Virus record (IMG/VR): IMGVR_UViG_3300044530_000622
Location: 1 to 64,000 of that record
Length of the DNA stretch: 64,000 nt
From: a virus
Reading direction: 5' to 3' (one strand)
Within the stretch, counting starts at the first letter, position 1, and every line of letters starts with the position of its first letter. Positions 3,999 through 48,597 of this stretch are shown piece after piece. Under the pieces are notes generated by a model. The model saw only the letters and a program-made list of their open reading frames with translations, was not told the DNA's origin and did not search any database. The translations under genes and the position numbers were made by a program.

Positions 3999-4136
3999 AT
4001 GCAAAAAATAGACATTAATTCAGCTTATGAAGCTGAAATTAAGAAAGTATTAGATGCTATTTGGGAAAATCGTTTTCGAATAAACTTGAATAATTTAGAA
4101 AAATTACGTAAATTAGCTAACAAAACAAAATTATGA
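3999..4136 (+). CDS. Small helical protein upstream of queC, 45 aa
   Basis: ATG 3999 follows the previous stop by 3 bases and the stop TGA 4134-4136 overlaps the queC start (ATGA), so the two are translationally coupled. The sequence is one long amphipathic helix (EAEIKKVLDAIWENRF). Unknown function. Confidence 0.5.
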   Translation: MQKIDINSAYEAEIKKVLDAIWENRFRINLNNLEKLRKLANKTKL

Positions 4137-4951
4137 ATAAACAAGCAGTGCTTAGCTTATCCGGGGGGATGGATTCCTCAACACTGTTACTACGTCTACT
4201 TGCCGATGGCTACGAAGTTACAGCACTATCCTTTGACTACGGTCAGAAACATAAAGTTGAACTCGAAAGAGCAAAAGCTCTAGTTCAATATTTAAATCAC
4301 CAAGTAACCCCCTTAGGGTATCCAGTAATCAGATATCAAGTAATTAAGCTTGACGGTTTAGCTCAATTGCTTAACTCTACTCTAGTTACAGGCGGTGCTG
4401 ATGTTCCTGAAGGGCATTATGCTGAAGAGAATATGAAAGCAACCGTTGTTCCGAATAGGAATAAAATCTTCAGTTCAATCATTCAAGCAGTTGCATTATC
4501 AGTTTCAGAACAGAAGAATACTAAATGCGTTATTGCAATGGGAATCCATTCTGGCGATCATGCTATTTATCCAGACTGCCGGGAAGAATTTAGGGATGCA
4601 GACTTTGAAGCATTTAAATCAGGTAACTGGGGTGCAGATAAAGTAAGCCTTTATACTCCCTATCTAAAGTCAACCAAGTTTGGAATCTTGAGAGATGGAG
4701 AGAAGTGCTGCGATAAAATGCATATTGACTTTGATTCTGTTTATGAAAAGACTAACACCTCTTATAAGCCAATCCAGATCAACGGTAGGTGGTACTCTGA
4801 TTACAAGTCAGCATCCTCAGTAGAGAGAGTAGAAGCATTCATTAAACTACAAAGAAAAGATCCAGTTCAATACGCTGACGAAGGCGGACCGGTAACTTGG
4901 GAGCAAGTAGTTGAACATGTTAAAAACGTTTTGAGTAAGCATGAAGGATAA
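4133..4951 (+). CDS. queC: QueC, 7-cyano-7-deazaguanine (preQ0) synthase
   Basis: Converts 7-carboxy-7-deazaguanine to preQ0 using ATP and ammonia. The PP-loop is intact (SGGMDS, residues 10-15), followed by the family blocks SFDYGQKH and VVPNRNKIF and a motif resembling AIYPDCREEF. Length 272 aa, about 40 longer than E. coli QueC. Odd point: the C-terminal zinc knuckle that normally carries four Cys is replaced (TSYKPI, then YSDYKSASSVERVEAF), so no metal-binding cysteines remain there. It sits apart from queD/queE (5.5-7.4 kb) and folE/queF (39.6-43.1 kb) but completes the same pathway. Confidence 0.88.
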   Translation: MNKQAVLSLSGGMDSSTLLLRLLADGYEVTALSFDYGQKHKVELERAKALVQYLNHQVTPLGYPVIRYQVIKLDGLAQLLNSTLVTGGADVPEGHYAEENMKATVVPNRNKIFSSIIQAVALSVSEQKNTKCVIAMGIHSGDHAIYPDCREEFRDADFEAFKSGNWGADKVSLYTPYLKSTKFGILRDGEKCCDKMHIDFDSVYEKTNTSYKPIQINGRWYSDYKSASSVERVEAFIKLQRKDPVQYADEGGPVTWEQVVEHVKNVLSKHEG

Positions 4952-5545: not shown

Positions 5546-6010
5546 ATGGGAAAATATCAATCAACAAAAGTATTTGACGGATTCAGCTGCGTATTCCGTC
5601 AATGGAAAGCAGAGGGAACTCATTGTAAGTACGTTCATGGATACGGAGTATCTTTTAAAGTATGGTTTGAAGGAGAGTTAGACGAAAAGAACTGGGTATG
5701 GGATTTCGGAGGAATGAAGAGAGCTAAAGGAACTATCGACGGAATGAATCCAAAAGCATGGATGGACTATATGTTCGATCATACTATGATTATTGCCGAA
5801 GATGATCCGTTCCTTGAATCATTTAAGTTAATGGATCGAGCAGGAGCAGCTCAAGTAAGAATCCTACCCGCAGTAGGAGCAGAGAAATTTGCTGAGCATA
5901 TCTTTAATAAGCTTCAGGAATTTATTCATACAGAGACAGAAGGCAGAGTGAGAGTAGTTCGAGTAGACTTTATGGAACATGGACGCAATTCAGCAATTTA
6001 CGAAGGATAA
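5546..6010 (+). CDS. queD: QueD-like 6-carboxytetrahydropterin synthase
   Basis: Makes 6-carboxy-5,6,7,8-tetrahydropterin from dihydroneopterin triphosphate, the step between FolE and QueE. Visible family marks: FSCVFRQW, then THCKYVHGYG (catalytic Cys with a His-Gly motif), WDFGGMK, MFDHTMII and, near the C-terminus, VRVDFMEHG. The usual HGH zinc pair reads HGY here, with an extra His before the Cys (THC), so metal ligation may be rearranged. 154 aa versus about 120 in E. coli. It starts a promoter-driven unit continuing to queE, now interrupted by an HNH gene. Confidence 0.8.
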   Translation: MGKYQSTKVFDGFSCVFRQWKAEGTHCKYVHGYGVSFKVWFEGELDEKNWVWDFGGMKRAKGTIDGMNPKAWMDYMFDHTMIIAEDDPFLESFKLMDRAGAAQVRILPAVGAEKFAEHIFNKLQEFIHTETEGRVRVVRVDFMEHGRNSAIYEG

Positions 6011-6647: not shown

Positions 6648-7439
6648 ATGTCAATAGAAATTAAAAAACCAGGTCGTATTTTAGATTACAACAAAAAATT
6701 ACCCATCATCGAACTTTATACTTGCATCCAGTCTGAAGGTTCAAGGCAGGGAAGACCTACCGTTGCTATCAGAACAACCGGATGTACTCACAGATGTTGG
6801 TTTGGCGAAGGCGGATGGTGTGATAGTTGGTATAGCAGTATACACCCTGAGAAAGGGCATATTACATTTAACGACATCATTAAAATTTATGATGAGAATC
6901 CAACCATTACTGAAATGATGTTGACTGGAGGTTCACCTACCATGCAGCCAGATCTATGTAATGAATTAACGCATTTTGCTAATCAAAGAGGAATATTTAT
7001 AACTATTGAAACAGAAGGTTCTCATTTTGTCGAGACGGATTATCCAATTGGTCTTATTTCCCTATCACCTAAGTTTAGTAATAGTGTGCCTAAGCTTGAT
7101 GTTACTACTCCAATGGGTAAACTGGTCGACCAGAAGATGATCGATCAGCATAATAAGCTACGTTTAAATGATGATGCAATTGAGAAGACCCTTGCATACC
7201 ATTCGGACTACCATTACAAACCAGTGTATGACGGTACTGAAGAAACAATGAATGAGATTGAAGAATTTAGAGTAAAGCACAACATCCCTAAGAATAAAAC
7301 CTGGTTGATGCCTGCTGGTGATAACAGAGAGGAATTGATCAAGCAGTATCCAATCTCATTAGAAAAAGCATTCGACATGGGCTACAATTGGACAGGAAGG
7401 GATCACATAATAAGCTGGGACACTAAGCGAGCAGTATAA
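6648..7439 (+). CDS. queE: QueE, 7-carboxy-7-deazaguanine synthase (radical SAM)
   Basis: Radical-SAM enzyme that rearranges 6-carboxytetrahydropterin to 7-carboxy-7-deazaguanine. Residues 21-42 resemble the family N-terminus (IELYTCIQSEGSRQGRP). The 4Fe-4S cysteines are C46, C50 and C58 (TGCTHRCWFGEGGWCDSW), spaced CX3CX7C rather than the textbook CX3CX2C, as in other expanded QueE loops. The SAM-binding motif LTGGSPTMQ follows at 92-100. 263 aa. Ends overlap the next ATG. Confidence 0.88.
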   Translation: MSIEIKKPGRILDYNKKLPIIELYTCIQSEGSRQGRPTVAIRTTGCTHRCWFGEGGWCDSWYSSIHPEKGHITFNDIIKIYDENPTITEMMLTGGSPTMQPDLCNELTHFANQRGIFITIETEGSHFVETDYPIGLISLSPKFSNSVPKLDVTTPMGKLVDQKMIDQHNKLRLNDDAIEKTLAYHSDYHYKPVYDGTEETMNEIEEFRVKHNIPKNKTWLMPAGDNREELIKQYPISLEKAFDMGYNWTGRDHIISWDTKRAV

Positions 7440-9976: not shown

Positions 9977-10486
9977 ATGGTTCTATTCACAGAAGAGGAA
10001 ATTCAAACAAGAGTAAAAAGTCTTGCCCTTGAGGTAAGCTACAAAAACAATCCTGAGAATTCATCAAGGGTTATGATCGGAGTTCTAAACGGAGCATTTA
10101 TGTTCTTCGCAGACCTGGTTCGTAACATGGAGGTTGATTGTGAAATCGACTTTATGCAAGCAAAATCATACTTAGGGCAAGTTCAAGACCGGGTAGATAT
10201 TCTGAAGGATGTCTCAATTGATTTAAAAGATAAGGACGTCTTTATAGTTGACGACATCTACGATTCGGGTAACACTATGAAACGCTTGATAGCCCATCTT
10301 CAAACTAAGGGAGCTAAGTCAATTACTCCGGTTACTTTATTTAAAAGAAGCTATTCCTATATGGAGGATCTTATCTACGGATTTGAATTAAATAATGAAG
10401 CATGGTTGGTAGGTTACGGCCTTGATGCAACTAACGGAACTAAGCGAAACCAGCCTTTTATCACCGGAGAAATAATTGAAGAATAA
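9977..10486 (+). CDS. hpt: Hypoxanthine-type phosphoribosyltransferase
   Basis: Purine salvage enzyme, 169 aa, joining a purine base to PRPP. The PRPP loop VFIVDDIYDSGNT is at residues 88-100, and VMIGVLNGAFMFFADL near the N-terminus is typical of HPRT. Base preference (hypoxanthine or guanine) cannot be read from the sequence; a 7-deazaguanine-related role is conceivable but unsupported. Two bases separate it from the next gene. Confidence 0.85.
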   Translation: MVLFTEEEIQTRVKSLALEVSYKNNPENSSRVMIGVLNGAFMFFADLVRNMEVDCEIDFMQAKSYLGQVQDRVDILKDVSIDLKDKDVFIVDDIYDSGNTMKRLIAHLQTKGAKSITPVTLFKRSYSYMEDLIYGFELNNEAWLVGYGLDATNGTKRNQPFITGEIIEE

Positions 10487-11925: not shown

Positions 11926-14262
11926 ATGGTTGTCGAAAAAAAGTATTACCTTGTCAATAGCAAAGAGCTAGTTGATCTCCTTATCCAGCATATTAACGAG
12001 AAAGAGATTCTTGCTTATGATACAGAAACAGACTCTTTAAATACTCGCAAAGGAAGGATTATTGGTTTTTCTGTTTCGGGTGAAGAAGGAATGGGCTTTT
12101 ATATGCCGACTATGTTTTGGAATAACGAAACTCAAACTCTTGACGAGTGTCAGATTGAAAGCATTGGCTGTCATCGAATAGCAAAGAAGATTATTTCGAT
12201 GCTGGTTGGAAAGAAACTTGTTATGCATAATGCTTCTTTTGACTGCCGTTATACAGATAACTTCTACAAAGTCAACTTGCTACCTTCACTTTGGGTTGAT
12301 ACTGCTTTACTAGTTCACACGGTAAAAGAAGAAGGAGCATTCGGGTATGGAGCAAGTCCTTTCGGACTAAAATCAATCGCCATTATGATTCAAGATAAGA
12401 TCGGTTTGAATGTTGAAGAAGCAGCTAACCAAGAACAGATCAACCTTAAGAACTCAATTAAGGAGAATGGCGGTTCAGTTACTAAAGATAACTTTGAGAT
12501 TTACAAAGCAGATATTAACCTGTTGAGTGAATATGCTGCTGCGGATACGGATCTTACTTTGCGTATTTGTAATCACTTTCTACCGGTTCTCGAGCATGAA
12601 GGACTAACTAAGTTCTTCTTTGAAGACGAAGTAATGCCCCTTTATAGAGAGGTTACTATACCAATGGAAATCGAAGGGATAGCCCTTGATATACCTTTGA
12701 TAGAACAAACTAGAGATGCTATCTTAACTGACCAGGAGAAGTATCGCCGGGCAGTAATTGAAGAACTACTTAAGCTACAAAAAGTTAAAGAATGGATTAT
12801 CGATTCAGCATTAACTGAATTCCCTCCAGGTCATAAAGGAACTTGGGCTTGTACGTTGGTTGATATGTATAAGCTCCCTATACCTAAAAACTCGAGAAAC
12901 TATTCTTTAAAGCAGGCTAACATCCTTATACTAGAGGATAGTCCGGTAAAAGATTATTTGCTTTCTGGAGATTTAGATTGCTTAACTGAAGAAGTTGTTA
13001 CTAAAGTTTCTATGAAGCTTTGGAAAGACTTTAACGACGGGGAGTGGTTAAATATTCAATCAAAGAAGCAGTTAGGTGATATCGCTTTTAACTACTTGAA
13101 AGAGAAGCCGTTATCTAAAACGACTAAAGGCCAAGCTCAATTCGATGATGATATGATTCAAGCTTTATCAGACAAATACGAATGGTGTAGGAACTTACGT
13201 ATCTATAATAAGCTCCTAAAGATTAAGTCAACCTACGTGGATCGATTTTACGATCAAGCAGAGGATGGACGTTTCTTCCCTTATTTTAAACAGAACGGAA
13301 CTGTGTCAGGCAGATACGGATCTGACCTTCAGCAGTTACCTAAGCCTAAAGAAGATGGAGAAGCAGATCCAATCATCGTTAAATACAATAACGAGATCAG
13401 AGCATTCTTTACAACAGACCCTGGTTACTTGTTGATTGATAATGACTTCGAGTCTTTAGAGCCTCACATTTTCGCTTCCATATCTAATGACGAAGCCATG
13501 CAAGAGATCTTTAGTCAAGGTCATGATTTCTATTCAACGGTTGCTATCCGAACCGAAAAGCTTGACGAACAAAGAGATAAGTACCCCGACGGAGTATCAG
13601 CTGATAAAAAGGCTCCTAACTTCCTTAAGAAGCTTGATGCACCTAAACGAAATCAAGCAAAGGGTTATTCGTTAGGAGTTGCTTACGGAATGTCTCCTTA
13701 CGCACTTGCAATGTCCTTAGGAGTACCTCAAGAAGAAGGAAAGAGGCTTCACGAAGGTTATATGAAAGGGTTCCCGGGAGTTGCTGAATGGATTGACAAT
13801 TCAAGAGCATTGTTTAAAAGAGATGGCTTTATTAAAAACCAAGTAGGTCGAATCCGACACCTTGATAGAGGTAAAGCGGTTTATGATTCTTTTGGAGAAA
13901 GGATTATGGATTGGAAGTTTAGAAATGATCTTACTAAAGAGATTGGAGGAGATAATGTAAAGAGACTCTACGGAGATTATAAGAATGCTTTGAATAACTG
14001 CTTAAACTTTCAAATTCAATCTTTAGCAGCATCAGTGGTTAATCGAGCAGCTTTAGCCATTAATAGGGAGTTTAAGAGAAGAGACTGGGACGGTATCGTT
14101 ATTGCCCAGATTCATGACCAATTGATCATTAAGATTAGAGAAGACTTAGTTCATGAAGCAGCTGAAGTAGTTAAGCATGTTATGGAAACCACTACCCAGC
14201 TACCAGGGGTAACCTTAAAGGCACCACCGGAAATAGCAAAGAATTTTAGGGATGGTCACTAA
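11926..14262 (+). CDS. polA: DNA polymerase I-type replicative polymerase (family A)
   Basis: 778 aa. Residues 1-230 are a DnaQ-like 3'-5' proofreading domain (YDTETDSL with D32/E34; HNASFDCRYTD; YAAADTDLT). The polymerase domain follows: NGTVSGRYGSDLQQLP, motif A DNDFESLEPHIFASIS, finger helix KRNQAKGYSLGVAYG and motif C QIHDQLII. No 5'-3' exonuclease domain. Motif C reads HDQ: catalytic Asp731 is kept but the next residue, normally Glu, is Gln732. It is the only DNA polymerase in the window. Confidence 0.93.
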   Translation: MVVEKKYYLVNSKELVDLLIQHINEKEILAYDTETDSLNTRKGRIIGFSVSGEEGMGFYMPTMFWNNETQTLDECQIESIGCHRIAKKIISMLVGKKLVMHNASFDCRYTDNFYKVNLLPSLWVDTALLVHTVKEEGAFGYGASPFGLKSIAIMIQDKIGLNVEEAANQEQINLKNSIKENGGSVTKDNFEIYKADINLLSEYAAADTDLTLRICNHFLPVLEHEGLTKFFFEDEVMPLYREVTIPMEIEGIALDIPLIEQTRDAILTDQEKYRRAVIEELLKLQKVKEWIIDSALTEFPPGHKGTWACTLVDMYKLPIPKNSRNYSLKQANILILEDSPVKDYLLSGDLDCLTEEVVTKVSMKLWKDFNDGEWLNIQSKKQLGDIAFNYLKEKPLSKTTKGQAQFDDDMIQALSDKYEWCRNLRIYNKLLKIKSTYVDRFYDQAEDGRFFPYFKQNGTVSGRYGSDLQQLPKPKEDGEADPIIVKYNNEIRAFFTTDPGYLLIDNDFESLEPHIFASISNDEAMQEIFSQGHDFYSTVAIRTEKLDEQRDKYPDGVSADKKAPNFLKKLDAPKRNQAKGYSLGVAYGMSPYALAMSLGVPQEEGKRLHEGYMKGFPGVAEWIDNSRALFKRDGFIKNQVGRIRHLDRGKAVYDSFGERIMDWKFRNDLTKEIGGDNVKRLYGDYKNALNNCLNFQIQSLAASVVNRAALAINREFKRRDWDGIVIAQIHDQLIIKIREDLVHEAAEVVKHVMETTTQLPGVTLKAPPEIAKNFRDGH

Positions 14263-39264: not shown

Positions 39265-39279
39265 TTCGTATCTTTAGGC
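39265..39279 (+). promoter_or_regulatory. Promoter for 39280
   Basis: TTCGTATCTTTAGGC directly abuts ATG 39280; upstream at the expected 20-base distance the sequence reads CTGG rather than TTG, so the upstream element is weak. Confidence 0.5.
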
Positions 39280-39606
39280 ATGGGAGAAAAAAGAGGCAAT
39301 ACTGGTAAATTAGAATTTGATTTTAATACCGCATGGGCACATGAAATTCAAATGAATAACGGTAAGTGGTACCGAGCATTAGATATTGATTTCAGATCGT
39401 TTAATGGACCGAGAAGAATCTCTGGCCCGAAAGGGATAGCATTAGGAGAGCATTTAGGTAGCGAGACTTTCGAGTATAATGGTCCTGTATACTTCTATAA
39501 GACTAATATCCGCTGTAATCCTCACGAGCATGAGAAAGGTAAGATCATCTACCAAGGAGGAGAGACTAGAGTAGAAGCAGAAAGAACTTCCGTTGCTGGA
39601 TTATAA
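39280..39606 (+). CDS. Hypothetical protein, 108 aa, leaderless
   Basis: The ATG immediately follows the promoter motif. Beta-rich (GKWYRALDIDFRSFNGPRRI; SETFEYNGPVYFYKTNIRC) with one internal Cys and His cluster (NPHEHEKG). The sequence is protein-like but unfamiliar. Ends just before the folE promoter. Confidence 0.55.
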   Translation: MGEKRGNTGKLEFDFNTAWAHEIQMNNGKWYRALDIDFRSFNGPRRISGPKGIALGEHLGSETFEYNGPVYFYKTNIRCNPHEHEKGKIIYQGGETRVEAERTSVAGL

Positions 39607-39642: not shown

Positions 39643-40320
39643 ATGGATTTAAAAGAATTTTCAGACGGTCTTGAATTAGCGAGCATGGGCTTTGCTAACG
39701 GCAAGGCACCCGGTTATCCGTTCACCGAAAAAGAGAAATGGAAGATGGTTGATAAGGCAGCAGATGCTTACGGAAAGTTTCTAGATGCATTAGGTTGTGA
39801 TTGGAAGAATGATCCTAACTCTTCTGATACTCCTCGCAGGGTAGCAAAAGCATACGTATTCGATTTATGGAAAGGACGTTACGATATGATGGATAACGTT
39901 ACTGCATTTCCTTCAGATGGATACGACGGAATGGTATTTGAAGGCAATATTCCAATTACCTCTATGTGTTCTCATCATCACCAAACAATCCAAGGCCGGG
40001 TTCATATCGGTTACATTCCTTCTCCAGAAGGTAAGGTTGTCGGTTTATCAAAGCTAAATAGGATTGTTGAATACTTCGGAAGAAGAGGAACAATCCAAGA
40101 ACAATATACAGTTGCAGTCCATAACGCAGTGAATAAGATTTGTGAAGGTAATCAGGGAGTAGCTGTAATGGTCGAAGCAACCCACAATTGCGTATCTTGC
40201 AGAGGAGTAAAGCATGCAGGAGCTTCTATGAAAACTTCAAAGTTATCAGGATGCTTCATGATGGAAGATTCAGCAAGAGCAGAGTTTTACGAATTCGTTA
40301 AAGGATATAGCTGCAAGTAA
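39643..40320 (+). CDS. folE: GTP cyclohydrolase I (FolE)
   Basis: Opens GTP to dihydroneopterin triphosphate, the first step of preQ0 synthesis and of folate. 225 aa, the normal length. Zinc ligands: MCSHHHQ (Cys109 and following His) and HNCVSCRGVKHAG (second Cys); GLSKLNRIVEYFGRR is the signature block. First gene of the dpd unit, sharing one base with the transglycosylase. Confidence 0.93.
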   Translation: MDLKEFSDGLELASMGFANGKAPGYPFTEKEKWKMVDKAADAYGKFLDALGCDWKNDPNSSDTPRRVAKAYVFDLWKGRYDMMDNVTAFPSDGYDGMVFEGNIPITSMCSHHHQTIQGRVHIGYIPSPEGKVVGLSKLNRIVEYFGRRGTIQEQYTVAVHNAVNKICEGNQGVAVMVEATHNCVSCRGVKHAGASMKTSKLSGCFMMEDSARAEFYEFVKGYSCK

Positions 40321-41111
40321 TGATTAAGATAGCGCACGAATCTCCTATCGATTTATTCTCTTACGTTCAAACTAAGACTGATTACGATTACTGCTTAGTT
40401 CATTTGTTAGAGGAGAGTGAAGCCTATAAAGAAGCCTTTGTTGAAGCCTGTAAAGAACGAGAAGTTATTTTAGATAATTCAATCTTTGAATTAGGAGAGG
40501 CTTTTGATATGAAGAAGTTCTTCGAATGGAATAATAAGCTTGAGCCTACCTGGTACATCATCCCAGATGCTTTAGAGGATGCAAAGACAACAATCTTTAA
40601 TGCTTACGTATGGAATCAGTTTCATAGACCAACCGCTAAGGGTAAAAGTATTGCAGTAGTTCAAGGAAAGACTTATGAGGAGATCGTGGAATGCTATCAG
40701 ACTTTAGATGACAAGCTGGATGTTGATATGATTGCAATCTCTTTTGATTATTCTCTCTATGAAAAAATAGTTCCTAATCCGAACAAGCTTGTAAGCTGGA
40801 TGCTAGGAAGAGTTGCTTTGCTAGGCAGATTAGAGAAGGACGGTATTATTAATAAGCAAAAGCCTCACCACTTACTCGGTTGTGCATTACCTCAAGAAGG
40901 TCAGTTCTACAAAGGATATGATTGGATTTACTCAATGGATACTTCTAACCCAGTAGTACATGCTATTAAAGGAATTCCTTATCCTCACTCCGGGCTTAAG
41001 ACAAAAGAGTCTCAGAAGCTATTTGAATTAATTAACTACCCGGCAGACCAAATCAGCAAGCATAACTTAGATTGGAATATTGACGTCTTTAAAGCATGGT
41101 GGAATGGGTAA
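40320..41111 (+). CDS. dpdA: DpdA-like DNA 7-deazaguanine transglycosylase
   Basis: 263 aa, predicted TIM-barrel related to tRNA-guanine transglycosylase: VILDNSIFELGEAF, IIPDALEDAKTT, VVQGKTYEEIVECY, HHLLGCALPQEGQFY and WIYSMDTSNPVVHA, with acidic residues at positions expected for base exchange (Asp52 and the Asp of SMDTSNP). No TGT zinc motif, as in viral DpdA. It would swap guanine in DNA for preQ1 or a related base. Subfamily not decidable by eye. Encoded between folE and the formyltransferase. Confidence 0.8.
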   Translation: MIKIAHESPIDLFSYVQTKTDYDYCLVHLLEESEAYKEAFVEACKEREVILDNSIFELGEAFDMKKFFEWNNKLEPTWYIIPDALEDAKTTIFNAYVWNQFHRPTAKGKSIAVVQGKTYEEIVECYQTLDDKLDVDMIAISFDYSLYEKIVPNPNKLVSWMLGRVALLGRLEKDGIINKQKPHHLLGCALPQEGQFYKGYDWIYSMDTSNPVVHAIKGIPYPHSGLKTKESQKLFELINYPADQISKHNLDWNIDVFKAWWNG

Positions 41112-41649
41112 GTGGATTGCATTCTTCTCTCAGACTGGCAACGAGATTGCTGAAGTAAGTAATCATTTAGATCGATGGCCTGATGTTATTATTACCAATG
41201 AAAGACCGGCCCGGTTAAGGAAAATAAACCAAGAGGTGCTCTCTAAAAATATTATAACATTACCGAACCAACCAACCGTAGAAGACTACCGTAGCGTCTT
41301 AGCAGAAGCAATCGGTATTGATACATACGTGATCACCTTACATGGATGGTTAAGAGTAATACCTACAGAAGTGATTGAAGAGTATTCAACTATCTACAAT
41401 GGACATCCTGGTTTGATCACTAAATACCCTGAACTGAAAGGAAAAGATCCTCAGATGAAAGCCTGGAATCTAGATTTGAGTAGTTCCGGCTGTGTAATTC
41501 ATCAAGTAACAGCAGGAGTGGATGATGGTCCGGTAGTTAGATCTCAGCAGATAAGCATCAGGAACCTTACAATGGATGAAATGTTTCAGAAGCTGCATAA
41601 CATCTCAGTCGATATGTGGGTAAACTTTCTTAAAAGACATTGGCTTTAA
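41104..41649 (+). CDS. dpdN: PurN-fold formyltransferase, candidate dPreQ1 formyltransferase (DpdN)
   Basis: 181 aa from ATG 41104. Formyltransferase core with a complete Asn-His-Asp set: YNGHPGLITKYPEL (Asn99, His101), and VIHQVTAGVDDGPVV (Asp140). The family uses 10-formyl-tetrahydrofolate. Coupled to the DpdA-like gene and located next to queF, it matches the predicted enzyme that formylates preQ1 in DNA. The alternative, a sugar N-formyltransferase for the glycan cluster, is less likely from position. Confidence 0.75.
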   Translation: MGKWIAFFSQTGNEIAEVSNHLDRWPDVIITNERPARLRKINQEVLSKNIITLPNQPTVEDYRSVLAEAIGIDTYVITLHGWLRVIPTEVIEEYSTIYNGHPGLITKYPELKGKDPQMKAWNLDLSSSGCVIHQVTAGVDDGPVVRSQQISIRNLTMDEMFQKLHNISVDMWVNFLKRHWL

Positions 41650-41671
41650 TCAAATTAACTTCGTATATTAA
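41640..41671 (+). promoter_or_regulatory. Promoter for 41677
   Basis: TTG 41640, 21 bases, TATATTAA 41664-41671, ATG 41677. Confidence 0.5.
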
Positions 41672-41676
41672 TACTA

Positions 41677-42213
41677 ATGAGAATATCATTTACAGGAGCT
41701 CAATCAACAGGTAAGACTACTCTACTAGAAGCAATTAAGCAGAACGAGGAGTTCAGGTACAAATACGAATTCATCGACGAGATTACCCGCCGGATGGTTA
41801 AGAAGGGTTTGAAGATAAACGAAGCAGGAGGTAATACTACCCAGCTTCTAATTATGAATGAGCATATTAAGAATACTCTGTATACTGATGCTATTATGGA
41901 TAGATGTGTCATCGACGGAGTAGTTTATACTCATTGGTTATACCAGCAAGGTAGTGTTGAGAAGTGGGTATGGGAATACTCTATGAACGTATTCAATCAT
42001 TACAAGGATCGCTATGATTATATCTTCTATCTAAAGCCTGAATTCGATATCGTAGACGATGGAACCAGGAGCACTAATACTCAATTCAGAGATGATATAG
42101 TAGACTTATTTGAACGATACATTAAGCATATAAAAGTTCCTGTAGTATACCTAACAGGATCAGTAGAAGAAAGATTAGAAAAATTTTATACAACAATAAA
42201 GAATCATGGATAA
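41677..42213 (+). CDS. P-loop kinase/AAA_28-like protein (NadR-kinase-like)
   Basis: 178 aa. Walker A ISFTGAQSTGKTTLLEAI at the very start, VIDGVVYTHWLY (LID/acceptor region) and IFYLKPEFDIVDDGTRST, resembling the ribosylnicotinamide-kinase type. Inserted between the formyltransferase and queF. Substrate not readable; a nucleotide or deazapurine nucleoside is conceivable. Confidence 0.7.
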   Translation: MRISFTGAQSTGKTTLLEAIKQNEEFRYKYEFIDEITRRMVKKGLKINEAGGNTTQLLIMNEHIKNTLYTDAIMDRCVIDGVVYTHWLYQQGSVEKWVWEYSMNVFNHYKDRYDYIFYLKPEFDIVDDGTRSTNTQFRDDIVDLFERYIKHIKVPVVYLTGSVEERLEKFYTTIKNHG

Positions 42214-43129
42214 TAATCAAAATACAGTAATTGAAATTGCCGGCAAACACCTTGGTAAGGTAGGCGGTGAGGGTTACAAGTCAACGTATGCTCCTGAGCT
42301 TCTCGTTGCAGTACCTCGCTACTACAACCGAGAGAGTTACAGCATTAAAGAAGGTGACCTACCCTTTGTAGGCGGTGATGTTTGGAATGCTTATGAAGTA
42401 TCAGCAATCACAGAGAATGGACGTCCGGTAAACGGAATGATGAAGATCTACTGTCCGGCAGATAGTCCTGCTCACGTAGAGTCTAAGTCAATCAAGCTTT
42501 ACTTGAACTCCTTTAACATGACCCGTTTGGGTTCTACAGCACACGAATGTGTTAACTTAGTTGAGCAGATGGTCACTAAAGATCTATCTAAACTATTACA
42601 GACAGAAGTTGAAGTTAAGTTCTTTACGAACGAGTTTACTCCTGAGGTAGAGTTTGGAACAGATTACATACACCTTGACCAGGCAGTTAATTTAGACGAA
42701 GAAACTTTCGATACATTCCATTCAGATGCTAGTCAGTTGCAATCAATGGAAGTAGCTCCTAATGAGGTAGCAGTTACGACTAAGATAACTTCAAACCTTT
42801 TGAGAAGTAACTGTAGGGTAACCAACCAACCAGACTGGGGTGATGTTTATATCGAGATTGAGACTACCGGAACAAATGCTCCTGATTTCAAATCGTTAGC
42901 AAAGTACATCGTATCTCATAGAGAGGTGTCTCATTTCCACGAAGAGATTTGTGAGATGATGTTTATGCATTTAACAGAAGCTTATCAACCTTCTCGTTTG
43001 ATGGTAGCTTGTTTGTATACCCGTAGAGGAGGATTGGATATTAATCCTATCAGAGCAACTCATACAGATATGATCCCAACAATGTTCACAGATGTAAATT
43101 ACAGAAACAAAAAAACACTTAGACAATAA
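42206..43129 (+). CDS. queF: QueF, preQ0 reductase (NADPH-dependent)
   Basis: Reduces the nitrile of preQ0 to the aminomethyl group of preQ1. 307 aa, bimodular long form. N-terminal half: VWNAYEVSAI and the NADPH motif ESKSIKLYLNSFN. C-terminal half: catalytic LRSNCRVTNQPDWG (Cys203, with the following Asp), HFHEEICEMMF (His-Glu) and YTRRGGLDINPIRA. All catalytic residues are present. Its product is the base that DpdN would formylate. Confidence 0.92.
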   Translation: MDNNQNTVIEIAGKHLGKVGGEGYKSTYAPELLVAVPRYYNRESYSIKEGDLPFVGGDVWNAYEVSAITENGRPVNGMMKIYCPADSPAHVESKSIKLYLNSFNMTRLGSTAHECVNLVEQMVTKDLSKLLQTEVEVKFFTNEFTPEVEFGTDYIHLDQAVNLDEETFDTFHSDASQLQSMEVAPNEVAVTTKITSNLLRSNCRVTNQPDWGDVYIEIETTGTNAPDFKSLAKYIVSHREVSHFHEEICEMMFMHLTEAYQPSRLMVACLYTRRGGLDINPIRATHTDMIPTMFTDVNYRNKKTLRQ

Positions 43130-43611: not shown

Positions 43612-44148
43612 ATGGAACAGGAACAGGTAGATACGGTTAAGCTAGCTCAAGAACTTAAAGCAGGTTCAGAGAGTGCTAAAGCACTTCTCTATACTAGGTA
43701 TAAGGCATACTTTTCAAAACTAGCATACAAGTATGTCAATAATGTAGATGATACAGATGATGTAGTCTGTGATAGCTTTGTAAGAATCTTTAGGTATATT
43801 GGACAACTAAAGGATGATAATTACTTAGTAGCATGGTGTGGTAGAGTGGTAATAACCACAGCACTTAATCATATAAAGAAGAGAAAGTATGAGCAATATC
43901 AGAAAGATGTAACCGTAGTAAATCCAGGAAGATGTAATGATACTCATTCACCTATGGACTTACAGGTGGTTATGAAATGTATAGATAATTTAGCACCGGG
44001 ATATAAAAGAGTGATTGAAATGTTCTGTATTGAAGGACTATCTGGACCAGAGATAGCAAAGGAATTAAATGTAGGGCATGTAACTGTCCGATCACAATTG
44101 TATAAAGCAAGAAAGGTATTAAAGAAAGCTATGAGACATGAATATTGA
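43612..44148 (+). CDS. ECF-type RNA polymerase sigma factor
   Basis: 178 aa with sigma region 2 (YKAYFSKLAYKYVNNVDD, DSFVRIFRYI, WCGRVVITTALNHIKKRK) and region 4 helix-turn-helix (APGYKRVIEMFCIEGLSG and NVGHVTVRSQLYKARKVL). It would direct host RNA polymerase to a subset of phage promoters. It sits immediately before the AACCGTA array and the many-promoter region. An ECF sigma beside a separate gp55-like sigma (58453) means two phage sigma factors. Confidence 0.88.
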   Translation: MEQEQVDTVKLAQELKAGSESAKALLYTRYKAYFSKLAYKYVNNVDDTDDVVCDSFVRIFRYIGQLKDDNYLVAWCGRVVITTALNHIKKRKYEQYQKDVTVVNPGRCNDTHSPMDLQVVMKCIDNLAPGYKRVIEMFCIEGLSGPEIAKELNVGHVTVRSQLYKARKVLKKAMRHEY

Positions 44149-44908: not shown

Positions 44909-45087
44909 CACTTTTTTTTATTTTTACCATATTTATTAATGTAGTCTACAGAGACATTGACGTTACATAAGGAAACGAGCTTAGGGCACATAATAAAATA
45001 ACAATCAAAAGCTTCTAGAACCTACAGAAACACTATAGTGGCCACAAAAAATGCTTTGGATGGTCGTTATTTTTTTTTGTCTAAAGG

Positions 45088-45118
45088 TTGCTTCTTCGGA
45101 GGCTTATTCGTATATTTA
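45088..45118 (+). promoter_or_regulatory. Promoter P1 of the small-gene region
   Basis: TTG 45088, 20 bases, TATATTTA 45111-45118, GGTAT, then a 20-base A-rich leader to ATG 45143. Preceded by GGAGGCTTATTCG, shared with the 46032 and 46481 promoters. Confidence 0.7.
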
Positions 45119-45142
45119 GGTATCAATAAGATAAAAACAGTT

Positions 45143-45931
45143 ATGAAAAACACATTTTTAACCACAGAGCAGATCGCCATTATGGCCCCTGCAGTTCTCG
45201 AGACTGGTGTCTCTTCAAAAGTATCTTCAAAGTATGTTCACGTACCCACTATCGATTTAATCGGTGATATGGCTACGATGGGATGGAATGTTGTTGATGC
45301 AAAGCAAAGAAAGACTCGCAAAGATGAAGCGGGTGGAAGCTTTAGTAAGCACATGGTTGTATTCAGAAACGACGATGTAGTTATTAAGAGTGAGGATGGA
45401 GAGGTTGTTTACCCTCAGATCCTATTGAGTAACTCTCACGATGGTCTTTCTTCATTCCAGTTCAGAGCCGGTTTGTTCAGATTGATTTGTTCTAATGGGT
45501 TGGTTATTGCAACCAAAGATTTCGGTTCTATGACCATCCGTCATAAGGGCTATTCTTTTGAGGAGTTAAAGAAGACGGTTATGGGGTTGGTTGAAACCTT
45601 ACCGGTGACTGTTGAGACCTTGAATAAATTTAGAGAGGTTACTTTGACTGAGGATCAGAAGGTTGAGATGGCTTTAGCTGCTTTGGGTATTAGATTTGGA
45701 GAAGGTGGAGCTGAGGTTACGGCTGAGGAAATTCTTAAGCCTGTTCGTTCTGAGGATGAAGGGAATGATCTTTGGACAGTCTTTAATGTGATTCAAGAGA
45801 AGATGGTTCGTGGTGGTTTTAAATACAAAGCCTCTACCGGCCGAAATAAGACGGCTAGGTCTATCAAGAACTTCAATAGAGATATTGAATTGAATGAGAA
45901 GCTTTACGAGCTTGCAGAATCGTTCATTTAA
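45143..45931 (+). CDS. DUF932-type protein, 262 aa
   Basis: From ATG 45143, placed by the leader ACAGTT. DUF932 hallmarks: VPTIDLIGDMATMGW, HMVVFRNDDVV, EVVYPQILLSNSHDGLSSFQ, AGLFRLICSNGLV. This plasmid/phage family is abundant in mobile elements and has no settled function, though nucleic-acid association has been suggested. Own promoter and own terminator make it a single-gene unit. Confidence 0.8.
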   Translation: MKNTFLTTEQIAIMAPAVLETGVSSKVSSKYVHVPTIDLIGDMATMGWNVVDAKQRKTRKDEAGGSFSKHMVVFRNDDVVIKSEDGEVVYPQILLSNSHDGLSSFQFRAGLFRLICSNGLVIATKDFGSMTIRHKGYSFEELKKTVMGLVETLPVTVETLNKFREVTLTEDQKVEMALAALGIRFGEGGAEVTAEEILKPVRSEDEGNDLWTVFNVIQEKMVRGGFKYKASTGRNKTARSIKNFNRDIELNEKLYELAESFI

Positions 45932-45935
45932 AGAG

Positions 45936-45961
45936 TGGGCCTTCGGGCCCATTTTTTTTTT
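45936..45961 (+). terminator. Intrinsic terminator
   Basis: TGGGCC-TTCG-GGCCCA with a UUCG tetraloop, followed by ten T. Confidence 0.9.
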
Positions 45962-45969
45962 TATTTTAG

Positions 45970-46000
45970 TTGGTCCCTTGGAGGCTTATTCGTATATTTA
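45970..46000 (+). promoter_or_regulatory. Promoter P2
   Basis: TTG 45970, 20 bases, TATATTTA 45993-46000, GGTAT; leader of about 27 A-rich bases ending AAGGTT before ATG 46032. Confidence 0.7.
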
Positions 46001-46031
46001 GGTATAGGAAAAAAGAAATAAAAAAAAGGTT

Positions 46032-46259
46032 ATGATAATCACAGAAAAAAACAACATCGAACTCTTCAGATTGAAGACAATCATCACAGGTCTTGAATTT
46101 GAAATCAAAACAGGCATGAAGATGTCTAGATTCTCAGCTAGGGATGCAGCTAAGCAGACATTGGGATTAAGTTCTAAATCCAGAGTCCAAAGCATCGAGC
46201 TCTACTTTGCAATGATTGAGCTTCACAATGAGAAGGTAAAAGAACTCACAGAGCAATAG
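46032..46259 (+). CDS. Small hypothetical protein, 75 aa
   Basis: Helical (LFRLKTIITGLEFEIKTGMK, then FSARDAAKQTLGLSSKSRVQ). The C-terminal half resembles small phage proteins predicted as helix-turn-helix-like, but I cannot confirm DNA binding. Own promoter and terminator. Confidence 0.6.
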   Translation: MIITEKNNIELFRLKTIITGLEFEIKTGMKMSRFSARDAAKQTLGLSSKSRVQSIELYFAMIELHNEKVKELTEQ

Positions 46260-46282
46260 TTTGGTTTAAGTTATATGAGAAG

Positions 46283-46310
46283 CTGGCCCCGAAAGGGGTC
46301 GGTTTTTTTT
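46283..46310 (+). terminator. Intrinsic terminator
   Basis: CTGGCCCC-GAAA-GGGGTCGG (two wobble pairs, GNRA loop) followed by eight T. Confidence 0.85.
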
Positions 46311-46329
46311 CATACCATTTTTTTTTAAA

Positions 46330-46407
46330 GAACAGCCTACGTCTGATTTCTTCAGGTTTTTACCCCGCCCTTCGTACTCCATCTTTCCGACATCCTAAAG
46401 ATACGAA
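46330..46407 (-). repeat. Divergent-promoter repeat, copy 2
   Basis: Second copy of the 44820 repeat, about 1.5 kb away. Minus-strand reading from ATG 46393 gives only a 13-residue peptide (MSERWSTKGGVKT, stop at 46352). Sequence beyond the stop is conserved, pointing to a functional RNA or DNA element rather than a conserved protein. Confidence 0.7.
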
Positions 46408-46426
46408 AAACAATTTTAATTTCCAA
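46396..46426 (-). promoter_or_regulatory. Minus-strand promoter 2
   Basis: Complement of CAA 46424-46426 gives TTG, exactly 20 bases, then TATCTTTA (complement of 46396-46403). Fires toward the terminator of the 46032 gene. Confidence 0.6.
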
Positions 46427-46446
46427 CAAAAGAATAAATAAATTAG

Positions 46447-46477
46447 TTGTTTGTTTAGAGGCTTATTCGTATCTTTA
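46447..46477 (+). promoter_or_regulatory. Promoter P3, leaderless
   Basis: TTG 46447, 20 bases, TATCTTTA 46470-46477, GGT, ATG 46481. The ATG sits about where transcription should begin. Confidence 0.7.
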
Positions 46478-46480
46478 GGT

Positions 46481-46660
46481 ATGGGAAATAAAGAACTACA
46501 AGCTATTGCAGACGACACAAGCAGGACTCCAAAGGAGAGAGACTTGGCTAGAATCTTAGCATTATCAACAATGATGTTGACTAGCGGTAACTACGAAGGA
46601 GCTTCTAACATTCTTAACATTTATGTTGAGGAAAAAAATAAAATAAAAGTTGGTTATTAA
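46481..46660 (+). CDS. Leaderless small protein, 59 aa
   Basis: Starts at ATG 46481 in the promoter's initiator region. Helical: NKELQAIADDTSRTPKERDL, ILALSTMMLTSGNYEGASNI. The middle resembles a TPR-like pair. Unknown role. Confidence 0.6.
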   Translation: MGNKELQAIADDTSRTPKERDLARILALSTMMLTSGNYEGASNILNIYVEEKNKIKVGY

Positions 46661-46680
46661 AGAGAAGATTCGTATCTTTA
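46650..46680 (+). promoter_or_regulatory. Promoter P4
   Basis: TTG 46650 (inside the previous gene's end), 20 bases, TATCTTTA 46673-46680, leader ending AAGGTT before ATG 46708. Confidence 0.65.
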
Positions 46681-46707
46681 GGTATAGAAAAGAAATAAAA
46701 AAAGGTT

Positions 46708-47058
46708 ATGATAAACAATATTAAAAACGCAATCGACAGGGTTTCCAACAGCTACCCTTCCATCTTTACTAAAGATGATGTAATTAAGTTGTTAGCAGAT
46801 TTATCTGCAGAAATGCAGGATGAAGCTCCAAAGCAAGTAATTGATAAGGATGTTCTCCTAACTACTTTCCGACAAATGCTTTCAGAGAAAGATTGGGATG
46901 ATGTTGCTGATAAGGATCAATTTGAGTTAAGTATTGGTTATGATAATAAAATTGAGATTGATAGAATTGCGATTGATGAGGATTTCTTAATTGATTCAGC
47001 TGTTGATTCATTGGAAGCTCTTTGGGATGTTTTAGAGGAGGCAGGAAACGAAGATTAA
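46708..47058 (+). CDS. Acidic hypothetical protein, 116 aa
   Basis: Begins INNIKNAIDRVSNSYPSIFT, then an acidic helical body (FRQMLSEKDWDDVADKDQFE) and DSAVDSLEALWDVLEEAGNED. Very acidic, all-helical, perhaps a DNA-mimic or inhibitor type of small phage protein; that is speculation from composition. Confidence 0.6.
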   Translation: MINNIKNAIDRVSNSYPSIFTKDDVIKLLADLSAEMQDEAPKQVIDKDVLLTTFRQMLSEKDWDDVADKDQFELSIGYDNKIEIDRIAIDEDFLIDSAVDSLEALWDVLEEAGNED

Positions 47059-47068
47059 AAAAAATTGG

Positions 47069-47096
47069 GGGAGGGTTGGTTCCCTCCCTTTTTTTT
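47069..47096 (+). terminator. Terminator overlapping the next promoter
   Basis: GGGAGGG-TTGGTT-CCCTCCC and eight T. The TTG of promoter 47076 is the loop of this hairpin, and the T run leads into TTCG. Confidence 0.85.
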
Positions 47097-47106
47097 CGTA
47101 TATTTA
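47076..47106 (+). promoter_or_regulatory. Promoter P5 in terminator loop, leaderless
   Basis: TTG 47076, 20 bases, TATATTTA 47099-47106, GGT, ATG 47110. Confidence 0.7.
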
Positions 47107-47109
47107 GGT

Positions 47110-47457
47110 ATGGGAGAAAATAAAAAAACACTTGTGGAGTACAACGAACATGTACTAAGCATTCACAAATTAGTTAAAGAGACTTACGGTGTTGAATGCC
47201 ACGCTATGGCTAACGCTATTACTACTAAACTAATTTCACCATCTTTATTGATGAGACACATGCTGACAGGGGAAGTAGTTCCAGATCCAGAGTATATTAT
47301 GTTCTCTGTAGCTAAGGACCTTAATCAATGTCAGATCAAGGAAGACACCTTTGGGGATTATGTTTCGGGTCTTGCTGACCCTGATAAGATACACGGTATT
47401 TTAGATGAAGCGATGGAGTTAACAGACAATGCCGGGTTCGGCGATGTTGAAGCTTAA
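47110..47457 (+). CDS. Leaderless hypothetical protein, 115 aa
   Basis: MGENKKTLVEYNEHVLSIHK, with a Cys/His pair (YGVECHAMANAI) and an acidic helical end (GILDEAMELTDNAGF). No domain recognised. Flanked by near-identical terminator-promoter blocks on both sides. Confidence 0.6.
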   Translation: MGENKKTLVEYNEHVLSIHKLVKETYGVECHAMANAITTKLISPSLLMRHMLTGEVVPDPEYIMFSVAKDLNQCQIKEDTFGDYVSGLADPDKIHGILDEAMELTDNAGFGDVEA

Positions 47458-47468
47458 AAAAAGATTAG

Positions 47469-47496
47469 GGGAGGGTTGGTTCCCTCCCTTTTTTTT
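47469..47496 (+). terminator. Terminator, near-identical to 47069
   Basis: The same GGGAGGG-TTGGTT-CCCTCCC hairpin and eight T as at 47069, so the whole block is a duplicated module. Confidence 0.85.
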
Positions 47497-47506
47497 CGTA
47501 TATTTA
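47476..47506 (+). promoter_or_regulatory. Promoter P6 in terminator loop, leaderless
   Basis: TTG 47476, 20 bases, TATATTTA 47499-47506, GGT, ATG 47510. Confidence 0.7.
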
Positions 47507-47509
47507 GGT

Positions 47510-47818
47510 ATGGTTAAAAAGACAAATAAATCCACCGATGAGACTTCCTTCCACGGCATTACGATTAAAACGACCTTGGGTAGGTTGAGAGCAGCATTCG
47601 GAGATCCGCAATGGGAGAGTAATGACGGGGAGGATAAAACCAACATCGATTACAATTTGGAAACTCCCGACGGAGATGTATTCACGGTTTACGATTGGAA
47701 AAATTATCGCCCCATTGGTGAGGATGAGGTTTTGGATTTTCACATCGGAGCAGATTCGAGCCGAATTGCTTTCCAGGCAAAAAATGAAATGCATAAAATG
47801 GGACTTTTTGTTGGTTAA
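47510..47818 (+). CDS. Leaderless hypothetical protein, 102 aa
   Basis: Beta-rich (SFHGITIKTTLGRLRAAFG; YNLETPDGDVFTVYDWKNY) with HIGADSSRIAFQAKNEM near the end. Resembles small phage proteins whose fold is unknown to me. The next promoter's TTG lies in its stop region. Confidence 0.6.
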   Translation: MVKKTNKSTDETSFHGITIKTTLGRLRAAFGDPQWESNDGEDKTNIDYNLETPDGDVFTVYDWKNYRPIGEDEVLDFHIGADSSRIAFQAKNEMHKMGLFVG

Positions 47819-47841
47819 TTGAAATATAATTCTTATCTTTA
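47811..47841 (+). promoter_or_regulatory. Promoter P7, leaderless
   Basis: TTG 47811, 20 bases, TATCTTTA 47834-47841, GGT, ATG 47845. Confidence 0.68.
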
Positions 47842-47844
47842 GGT

Positions 47845-48120
47845 ATGGAAGTTAATAAGGTTATAGAATTGCTAGGAGATAAGATCTTCACAGTTTCCTT
47901 CACAAAGAAGGATGGTTCAATCAGATTGATGAATGCTCGTAGGGGTGTTACTAAAGGAGTCAAAGGAGTTGGAATGTCTTACAATCCCTCTGAGAAAGGA
48001 TTGGTCGTTGTCTTTGATATGCAGAAAGAAGCATTCAGGATGATTAATGCTAATACTATTCACGAGATTAAAGCAGACAAAAATATTTACGTTTTTAAGG
48101 ATGGAGAGTTGGTTCTTTGA
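47845..48120 (+). CDS. SH3-like beta-barrel phage protein, 91 aa
   Basis: FTVSFTKKDGSIRLMNARRG, GVTKGVKGVGMSYNPSEKGL and FRMINANTIHEIKADKN follow the pattern of the small SH3-fold proteins widespread in Bacteroidota phages. Such proteins probably bind nucleic acid or RNA polymerase, but none is characterised to my knowledge. Leaderless start. Confidence 0.68.
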   Translation: MEVNKVIELLGDKIFTVSFTKKDGSIRLMNARRGVTKGVKGVGMSYNPSEKGLVVVFDMQKEAFRMINANTIHEIKADKNIYVFKDGELVL

Positions 48121-48139
48121 ACCAGCTTTCGTATCTTTA
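48109..48139 (+). promoter_or_regulatory. Promoter P8
   Basis: TTG 48109 (in the previous gene), 20 bases, TATCTTTA 48132-48139, short leader ending AAGGTT to ATG 48157. Confidence 0.68.
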
Positions 48140-48156
48140 GGTATAGAAAAAAGGTT

Positions 48157-48375
48157 ATGATAAAGCTAGTCGTTGGTTACAGGCCCATTACAGATGAAGG
48201 AAGGAAGCTTGAGATTGCTTCTTCAGATAAATTGAAACTTGAATTGACAAGCTCCTATAAGAGGGAAACTCTTTATCAGGATTTCGATTGTAACATTTAT
48301 ACTTACGCTCAGCTTATGGGGACTATGGTCCGGTTCATGGATGGGTCTACTATGGAGCTAGAGATTGCGAAATGA
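48157..48375 (+). CDS. Hypothetical protein, 72 aa
   Basis: Beta-rich with charged loops (VVGYRPITDEGRKLEIAS; LTSSYKRETLYQDFDCNIYT). Overlaps the next gene by 4 bases, so the pair forms one unit. Unknown. Confidence 0.58.
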   Translation: MIKLVVGYRPITDEGRKLEIASSDKLKLELTSSYKRETLYQDFDCNIYTYAQLMGTMVRFMDGSTMELEIAK

Positions 48376-48554: not shown

Positions 48555-48563
48555 AAAATAAAG

Positions 48564-48594: not shown

Positions 48595-48597
48595 GGT

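What the first reader, a model, noticed from the sequence alone, without database searches (positions are those of the whole stretch)
39643..43129. Apparently complete 7-deazaguanine DNA-modification pathway ending in a formyltransferase
The window holds FolE, QueD (5546), QueE (6648), QueC (4133), QueF, a DpdA-like transglycosylase and a PurN-fold enzyme with intact Asn99/His101/Asp140. QueF implies preQ1 rather than preQ0, and the formyltransferase directly overlaps dpdA. The literature on viral 7-deazaguanines predicts a dPreQ1 formyltransferase (DpdN). This set fits that proposal and would make 7-(formylamino)methyl-7-deazaguanine DNA in a Bacteroidota phage. Whether formylation acts on the free base or on DNA is open.
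Basis: partly seen in the sequence, partly recalled or inferred. Interest (0 to 1): 0.85.

Follow-up and report, generated by a model that had tools for sequence, protein, structure and literature searches.

The report
Phage pathway for formylated 7-deazaguanine DNA
This bacterial virus carries a complete gene set that probably swaps the guanines in its DNA for a chemically altered, formyl-capped version; close relatives share it, and a nucleotide kinase plus swappable capping enzymes next to it suggest a testable explanation of how some viruses can replace every guanine.

Summary
The window (a 115-kb IMG/VR phage record) encodes FolE, QueD, QueE, QueC, a bimodular QueF, a short TGT-fold transglycosylase (DpdA) and a Formyl_trans_N protein with N99/H101/D140, which overlaps dpdA by 8 bp. 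The order FolE-DpdA-formyltransferase-kinase-QueF recurs in Flavobacterium phage immuto. Of 39 non-redundant QueF-anchored viral loci, 36 have the formyltransferase. All active-site residues tested are essentially invariant in about 140 relatives, and an invariant Glu replaces PurN's phosphate-binding Asn. N-formyl-preQ1 (fdPreQ1) DNA is the best reading. It is a new member of a published kind (predicted DpdN; that paper was not held, so its details are from memory).

(1) A deoxynucleoside-kinase-fold protein lies between the formyltransferase and QueF in 108 of 115 loci. Small P-loop kinases also adjoin short DpdAs in Campylobacter (100% dG replaced), Cellulophaga, Chryseobacterium and Bacillus phages, but none adjoins the four DpdA1/DpdA2 loci checked. 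(2) Where the formyltransferase is absent, a GNAT acetyltransferase lies in the gap in 3 of 4 loci, against 0 of 111 otherwise, so amine-capping enzymes look interchangeable. (3) Repeated Bacteroidota-type promoters support the host. Whether exchange happens on DNA or on nucleotides is open, and no activity was measured.

The parts
4133..4951 (+). QueC (7-carboxy- to 7-cyano-7-deazaguanine, preQ0)
   Evidence: Pfam QueC 3.3e-38
5546..6010 (+). QueD (6-carboxytetrahydropterin synthase)
   Evidence: Pfam PTPS 3.6e-15; PHROG QueD-like 1.3e-38; 73% to immuto QueD
6648..7439 (+). QueE (7-carboxy-7-deazaguanine synthase, radical SAM)
   Evidence: PHROG QueE-like 1.2e-45; 68% to immuto QueE
9977..10486 (+). 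Phosphoribosyltransferase; possible salvage of guanine released by base exchange (inferred)
   Evidence: Pfam Pribosyltran 5.4e-22; a different phosphoribosyltransferase lies in the cluster in 58/98 related loci
39265..39281 (+). Bacteroidota-type -7 promoter element upstream of the folE block (1 mismatch to the repeated consensus)
39643..40320 (+). FolE (GTP cyclohydrolase I)
   Evidence: Pfam 4.2e-44
40320..41111 (+). Short DpdA-type guanine transglycosylase (263 aa; DpdA3-like by memory of the literature)
   Evidence: Fold = TGT, 50/50 listed PDB matches; D52, D83, Q115, D207 conserved in 143-144/144; 60% to immuto protein annotated DpdA
41104..41649 (+). PreQ1 N-formyltransferase (DpdN-type), ATG at 41104
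   Evidence: Pfam Formyl_trans_N 1.6e-12; PDB profile best PurN 8.6e-14; N99/H101/D140 and E14 in 137/137
41677..42213 (+). P-loop kinase of deoxynucleoside-kinase fold (AAA_28)
   Evidence: Pfam AAA_28 1.6e-19; model pLDDT 92.7; top PDB fold matches are deoxynucleoside kinases, 1.3e-8; present in 108/115 related loci
42206..43129 (+). Bimodular QueF (preQ0 to preQ1, NADPH nitrile reductase)
   Evidence: QueF_N 8.3e-33 plus QueF 3.6e-18; ESKSxKL, C203, D210 in 137/137
11926..14262 (+). Family A DNA polymerase; directly follows QueF in many relatives, separate here
   Evidence: Pfam DNA_pol_A 6.4e-59; order in relatives

Best explanation
A phage of a Bacteroidota host makes its own preQ0 (FolE, QueD, QueE, QueC) and reduces it to preQ1 (QueF). 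A TGT-fold transglycosylase (short DpdA) exchanges guanine for the 7-deazaguanine base. The Formyl_trans_N enzyme transfers a formyl group from 10-formyl-tetrahydrofolate to the aminomethyl nitrogen, so the DNA carries 7-(formylamino)methyl-7-deazaguanine (fdPreQ1), probably at a high fraction of G, as a shield against nucleases. Shown here: gene content, folds, catalytic residues, gene linkage. Inferred: the product, the level of replacement and the function. Order of steps (inferred): formylation of the free base before exchange is slightly favoured (about 0.5), because QueF works on the free base and the enzyme has an invariant Glu where PurN binds a phosphate; formylation on DNA about 0.3, on a nucleotide about 0.2. 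Insertion: exchange on DNA follows published precedent for DpdA1 (about 0.55); exchange on free nucleotides followed by the adjacent kinase is the serious rival (about 0.35-0.4).
For: Complete gene set. DpdA model matches only TGT among the 50 listed PDB hits, with the TGT-like acidic and Gln residues conserved in 143-144/144 relatives and the motif order of TGT (DNSIFE / PDALED / VVQG / HHLLG..P / DTSNP, my reading). QueF is bimodular and keeps the NADPH motif E-S-K-S-x-K-L plus catalytic Cys203/Asp210 in 137/137, so it should be a nitrile reductase and not a QueF-L amidinotransferase (the difficulty of that distinction is described in PMC6884629). The formyltransferase keeps N/H/D in 137/137. 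QueF-anchored sampling, independent of the formyltransferase, gives it in 36/39 and DpdA in 38/39 non-redundant loci. It was not found where QueF is absent (CP220, phi13:1, MA9V-3, Youna2, BSTP12) or where DpdA is the long type (VH7D, L234). Where it is missing, GNATs lie in the DpdA-QueF interval in 3/4 loci against 0/111 with the formyltransferase, as expected if the job is capping the preQ1 amine. CP220, with a homologous DpdA, has 100% of dG replaced.
Against: No chemistry was measured. The formyltransferase substrate is inferred from gene linkage and conserved residues only. Its closest solved relatives are PurN enzymes. The deposited relatives call it phosphoribosylglycinamide formyltransferase, by homology. 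The high replacement level is extrapolated from CP220, whose DpdA is only about 40% identical and which makes dADG.
Confidence: 0.8

Rival explanations
1. Nucleotide-level route. Short DpdA exchanges guanine in dGMP (or deoxyguanosine), not in DNA; the adjacent deoxynucleoside-kinase-fold enzyme phosphorylates the modified (deoxy)nucleotide; a family A polymerase builds it in. In many relatives an NTP pyrophosphohydrolase could supply dGMP and a phosphoribosyltransferase could recycle guanine. This would explain complete replacement of G and would work like the Z-genome phages (MazZ/PurZ/DpoZ; own knowledge).
For: Kinase in 108/115 short-DpdA loci that have QueF, kept when the formyltransferase is lost (L099, L155, L227, L232). 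Small P-loop kinases of different Pfam families adjoin short DpdA in CP220 (AAA_28), phi13:1 and MA9V-3 (AAA_18/33), BSTP12/Youna2 (labelled thymidylate kinase in sister records). None adjoins DpdA1 or DpdA2 in CAjan, Dp-1, VH7D or L234. The kinase fold is closest to deoxyadenosine, deoxycytidine and deoxyguanosine kinases and TMK. CP220 has 100% replacement, while phages with other DpdAs have 0.02-32% of G (CAjan percentage computed from the table). PRA-PH/MazG in 48/98 and phosphoribosyltransferase in 58/98 non-redundant loci. DNA polymerase directly downstream in BSTP12, Youna2, StAshley. Short DpdAs are acidic, median pI 5.2.
Against: One sub-clade (7 loci, e.g. L291) and two further lineages (StAshley, L315) have short DpdA with no such kinase adjacent. 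Counting lineages, the kinase/DpdA-type association is only p=0.08. The window's record has no matching NTP pyrophosphohydrolase. My memory of Cui et al. 2023 is that insertion was judged post-replicative for all viral DpdAs. Kinases and MazG are common phage nucleotide-supply genes.
Confidence: 0.36
2. The kinase is an ordinary dNMP/deoxynucleoside kinase for dNTP supply, clustered with the pathway only because both belong to nucleotide metabolism; DpdA acts on DNA.
For: Deposited relatives are called thymidylate kinase. The kinase also occurs in Streptomyces phages with no 7-deazaguanine genes in the stretch seen.
Against: Tight placement between formyltransferase and QueF across very divergent loci, and different kinase families placed next to short DpdA in other lineages.
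Confidence: 0.5
3. The formyltransferase is a phage PurN that boosts purine synthesis, unrelated to DNA modification.
For: Best PDB profile matches are PurN.
Against: PurN's GSN phosphate loop is not kept: Glu14 invariant in 137/137. Strict linkage to DpdA-QueF. Swapped for GNATs in some relatives.
Confidence: 0.04
4. The genes raise queuosine precursors for host tRNA, DpdA being a tRNA TGT.
For: TGT fold.
Against: No CxC..C zinc cluster in the sequence. Homologous to CP220 gp056 of a phage with fully dADG-substituted DNA. A formylated amine could not be elaborated further to queuosine (own knowledge).
Confidence: 0.04
5. QueF acts as QueF-L and the DNA carries archaeosine (dG+) instead of dPreQ1.
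For: PMC6884629 warns that sequence alone separates QueF and QueF-L poorly.
Against: Bimodular QueF with the full NADPH motif in 137/137. A QueF-L-labelled phage enzyme (Dp-1) proved to give dPreQ1.
Confidence: 0.04

Closest known systems
7-deazaguanine cluster of Flavobacterium phage vB_FspM_immuto_2-6A (MW353175)
   Same: Same genes in the same order FolE-DpdA-formyltransferase-kinase-QueF; proteins 36-73% identical
   Different: Immuto has an NTP pyrophosphohydrolase between FolE and DpdA and a phosphoribosyltransferase before FolE, and keeps QueD/QueE within 5 kb; the window lacks the pyrophosphohydrolase and holds QueC/D/E 33 kb away
DpdN, predicted dPreQ1 formyltransferase, and fdPreQ1 (Cui et al. 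2023, NAR, doi 10.1093/nar/gkad657; paper not held, existence confirmed through citations, content from memory)
   Same: Same predicted reaction and product
   Different: Cannot be compared residue by residue here; the window member is from an uncultured phage
Short DpdA plus kinase of Campylobacter phages CP220/CPt10
   Same: Homologous DpdA (40%) and AAA_28 kinase (33-37%) side by side
   Different: No QueF or formyltransferase found; product dADG with 100% of dG replaced (PMC8306585)
DpdA2-type phages (Vibrio VH7D) and DpdA1-type phages (CAjan, Dp-1)
   Same: preQ0/preQ1 supply genes and a TGT-like DpdA
   Different: DpdA of 306-458 aa, not matched significantly by the short-DpdA profile; no adjacent kinase and no formyltransferase
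PurN glycinamide ribonucleotide formyltransferase
   Same: Formyl_trans_N domain with N/H/D catalytic triad
   Different: GAR phosphate loop altered (Glu in place of Asn), different gene context

Membership tests
DpdA (viral DNA-guanine transglycosylase, short type) | TGT-type TIM-barrel fold | tested here: met
   AF2 model pLDDT 96.7; 50/50 listed PDB matches are TGT, best 5.6e-7
DpdA (viral DNA-guanine transglycosylase, short type) | Conserved catalytic and base-recognition residues | tested here: met
   D52, D83, Q115, D207 in 143-144/144; correspondence to TGT D102/D156/Q203/D280 is my motif reading
DpdA (viral DNA-guanine transglycosylase, short type) | Genetic linkage to preQ0/preQ1 synthesis | tested here: met
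DpdA (viral DNA-guanine transglycosylase, short type) | Inserts a 7-deazaguanine into DNA | not testable with these tools
   Needs enzyme assay or virion DNA mass spectrometry
tRNA-guanine transglycosylase (Tgt) | Zinc-binding CxC...C...H cluster | tested here: not met
   Only four Cys in the sequence, no CxC
DpdN (predicted dPreQ1 formyltransferase) | Formyl_trans_N domain with Asn/His/Asp | tested here: met
DpdN (predicted dPreQ1 formyltransferase) | Occurs with QueF and DpdA | tested here: met
   36/39 QueF-anchored loci
DpdN (predicted dPreQ1 formyltransferase) | Formylates preQ1 or dPreQ1 | not testable with these tools
   Needs assay
PurN (GART) | GAR phosphate-binding loop with Asn | tested here: not met
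   Glu14 in 137/137 at the aligned position
Sugar N-formyltransferase | Best profile match to that family | tested here: not met
   Best PurN 8.6e-14 against best sugar enzyme 2.1e-6
QueF (NADPH nitrile reductase, bimodular) | QueF_N plus QueF domains, ESKSxK NADPH motif, catalytic Cys and Asp | tested here: met
QueF-L (amidinotransferase) | Single-domain protein without the NADPH motif (own knowledge) | tested here: not met
   Motif present in 137/137 and two domains
Deoxynucleoside / deoxynucleotide kinase (kinase 41677-42213) | P-loop and dNK/TMK fold | tested here: met
Deoxynucleoside / deoxynucleotide kinase (kinase 41677-42213) | Phosphorylates a (deoxy)nucleoside or nucleotide | not testable with these tools
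   Needs assay
Z-genome-like nucleotide-level replacement | dNTP pyrophosphohydrolase supplying dGMP | tested here: not met
   None found in the window's record; present in 48/98 related loci

The most novel reading that the evidence does not exclude
Short-DpdA phages replace guanine before replication: DpdA swaps the base on dGMP or deoxyguanosine, the partner kinase activates the modified nucleotide, and the polymerase installs it at every G. The preQ1 amine is capped by interchangeable enzymes (formyltransferase, GNAT, and in some phages an amidoligase-like protein plus GNAT), which predicts several unseen N-acyl-preQ1 DNA bases.
Probability: 0.35. Interest if true: 0.87.

Novelty: new member of a known kind. 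Interest (0 to 1): 0.6.

Why it matters
The cluster fits a predicted but (as far as I know) untested enzyme, DpdN, and shows that it is widespread: 486 viral-contig relatives were reported in one scan. The unremarked kinase and the swap of formyltransferase for acetyltransferases turn two open questions, how some phages replace all their guanines and whether the amine is modified before or after insertion, into simple assays with small proteins.

Tried and rejected
Profile search of DpdA against PDB sequences gave only chance matches, so the fold was used. The published paper on fdPreQ1/DpdN is not in the library. A nucleotide pyrophosphohydrolase in the window's own record was sought and not found. 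A sequence search of solved structures for the amidoligase-like protein found nothing; its Pfam match is below cut-off (0.002), so that assignment is tentative. I considered the kinase as a 5-hydroxymethyl-dU DNA kinase (thymidine hypermodification) and left it as unlikely: preQ1 and dADG carry no hydroxyl to phosphorylate, and no partner genes were looked for systematically. I ran no further search on the formyltransferase because its family is clear from sequence.
Full report
What was checked. The window is part of a 115-kb virus record; a 166-kb IMG/VR contig carries an identical copy of the block. The formyltransferase ATG at 41104 lies 8 bp inside dpdA; in that numbering N99, H101 and D140 are intact.

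Relatives. The same order FolE-DpdA-formyltransferase-kinase-QueF is found in Flavobacterium phage immuto 2-6A, whose record labels the middle genes DpdA, phosphoribosylglycinamide formyltransferase, thymidylate kinase and QueF. A profile scan of viral contigs reported 486 formyltransferase relatives, of which the best 80 were taken. To avoid choosing loci by the formyltransferase, I sampled by QueF: of 39 non-redundant loci with enough upstream sequence, 38 had DpdA, 37 the kinase and 36 the formyltransferase. All 80 QueF loci share a QueF subfamily, so this is deep conservation within related phages, not many independent inventions.

DpdA. Pfam gives nothing convincing. The AlphaFold2 model (pLDDT 96.7) has only TGT among the 50 listed PDB matches. 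Residues that my motif reading matches to the TGT nucleophile, general acid and base-recognition residues are conserved in 143-144 of 144. The protein is 263 aa with no CxC zinc site. Its profile recovers CP220 gp056, Cellulophaga phi13:1 gp036 and proteins of MA9V-3, Youna2 and BSTP12, but does not match the DpdAs of CAjan, Dp-1 or VH7D significantly. CP220 and CPt10 DNA has 100% of dG replaced by dADG (PMC8306585; also PMC10273834). In 2019 those phages were listed as lacking DpdA and a DpdA-independent route was considered (PMC6884629); the homolog is found here, and, from memory, the 2023 paper names the group DpdA3.

QueF. It is bimodular; the NADPH motif ESKSxKL and the catalytic Cys/Asp are present in 137/137, so preQ1 is the expected product. 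PMC6884629 cautions that QueF and QueF-L are hard to separate by sequence and reports dPreQ1 for Dp-1, whose enzyme had been predicted to be QueF-L.

Formyltransferase. Profile against solved structures: PurN first (8.6e-14), sugar N-formyltransferases far behind. The catalytic triad is invariant. PurN's phosphate-binding loop is changed, an invariant Glu standing at the aligned Asn, which argues against GAR and against a phosphate in that pocket. It was not found in phages with short DpdA but no QueF (CP220, phi13:1, MA9V-3, BSTP12, Youna2), nor in those with QueF but long DpdA (VH7D, L234). It therefore follows the pair short DpdA plus QueF, as expected for an enzyme that caps the preQ1 amine.

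Swaps. Among 115 non-redundant viral loci with DpdA and QueF, four lack the formyltransferase. In three of them a GNAT lies in the DpdA-QueF interval: fused to the kinase (L099), as a HAD-GNAT protein with a glyoxalase-like neighbour (L227/L124), or between kinase and QueF (L155). In the intervals of the 111 loci with the formyltransferase, 55 additional ORFs gave no GNAT at the same threshold; Fisher p = 2e-5. Two of the three GNAT calls are below Pfam's curated cut-off, but a relative of one (L311, from a bacterial bin, 49% identical) is above it. L155 and L311 also share a conserved protein with a weak amidoligase match. I read these as alternative caps on the same amine; this is inference.

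Kinase. It is present in 108 of 115 loci and is kept where the formyltransferase is lost. The predicted structure (pLDDT 92.7) is closest to deoxynucleoside kinases and thymidylate kinases. In five other named phages with short DpdA a small P-loop kinase is directly adjacent, from different Pfam groupings (sister Bacillus records call it thymidylate kinase). At four DpdA1/DpdA2 loci none is adjacent. Exceptions: a sub-clade of seven loci with a small protein in its place (DUF3310 in at least five of them), Brevundimonas phage StAshley and a Clostridia bin locus. By lineage this is 5/8 against 0/4, p = 0.08. A PRA-PH/MazG-type pyrophosphohydrolase adjoins DpdA in 48 of 98 loci and a phosphoribosyltransferase is nearby in 58 of 98; the window's record lacks the former and has an unlinked phosphoribosyltransferase. 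Together this resembles a nucleotide-level replacement pathway, but the case is circumstantial.

Host. The window has about 20 copies of GTTG-N20-TATMTTTAGGTAT-like intergenic elements, against 1.5-1.9 expected, matching the Bacteroidota primary sigma consensus (own knowledge), with one -7 element just upstream of the folE block. With immuto as the closest isolate, a Bacteroidota host is well supported.

Verdict. Observation confirmed; interpretation supported. The cluster is a new member of a published kind. The added value is the kinase association, the interchangeable amine caps and the resulting testable question about where guanine exchange happens.

Noticed in passing
window 6078-6617: HNH/NUMOD3 homing-type endonuclease gene inserted between queD and queE.
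   Followed up: partly
window 45087-53143: About 20 repeated intergenic elements GTTG-N20-TATMTTTAGGTAT, far above chance, resembling Bacteroidota sigma-A promoters.
   Followed up: partly
window 53854-54883: Cluster of six tRNA genes (Leu, Arg, Met, Ser, Gln, Glu).
   Followed up: no
window 43612-44148: Sigma-factor-like protein just after the queF block (my reading of the sequence); homologs lie after the block in L005 and L007.
   Followed up: no
L099 6120-7076: Kinase fused to a GNAT-like domain in a cluster without the formyltransferase.
   Followed up: partly
L155 9012-10052 and L311 6980-7975: Amidoligase-like protein (79% identical pair) in place of the formyltransferase, with a GNAT next to QueF; possible aminoacyl cap on preQ1.
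   Followed up: partly
L221, L222, L225, L243, L291, L293, L296: Sub-clade with the formyltransferase but no kinase; a small protein (DUF3310 in at least five) occupies its place.
   Followed up: partly
L316 6660-9236 (Brevundimonas phage StAshley): Family A DNA polymerase fused to a uracil-DNA-glycosylase-superfamily domain, next to a short DpdA.
   Followed up: no
L168 10862-11893 (CP220 gp055): HD phosphohydrolase fused to an AAA_33 kinase-like domain directly before the short DpdA.
   Followed up: no
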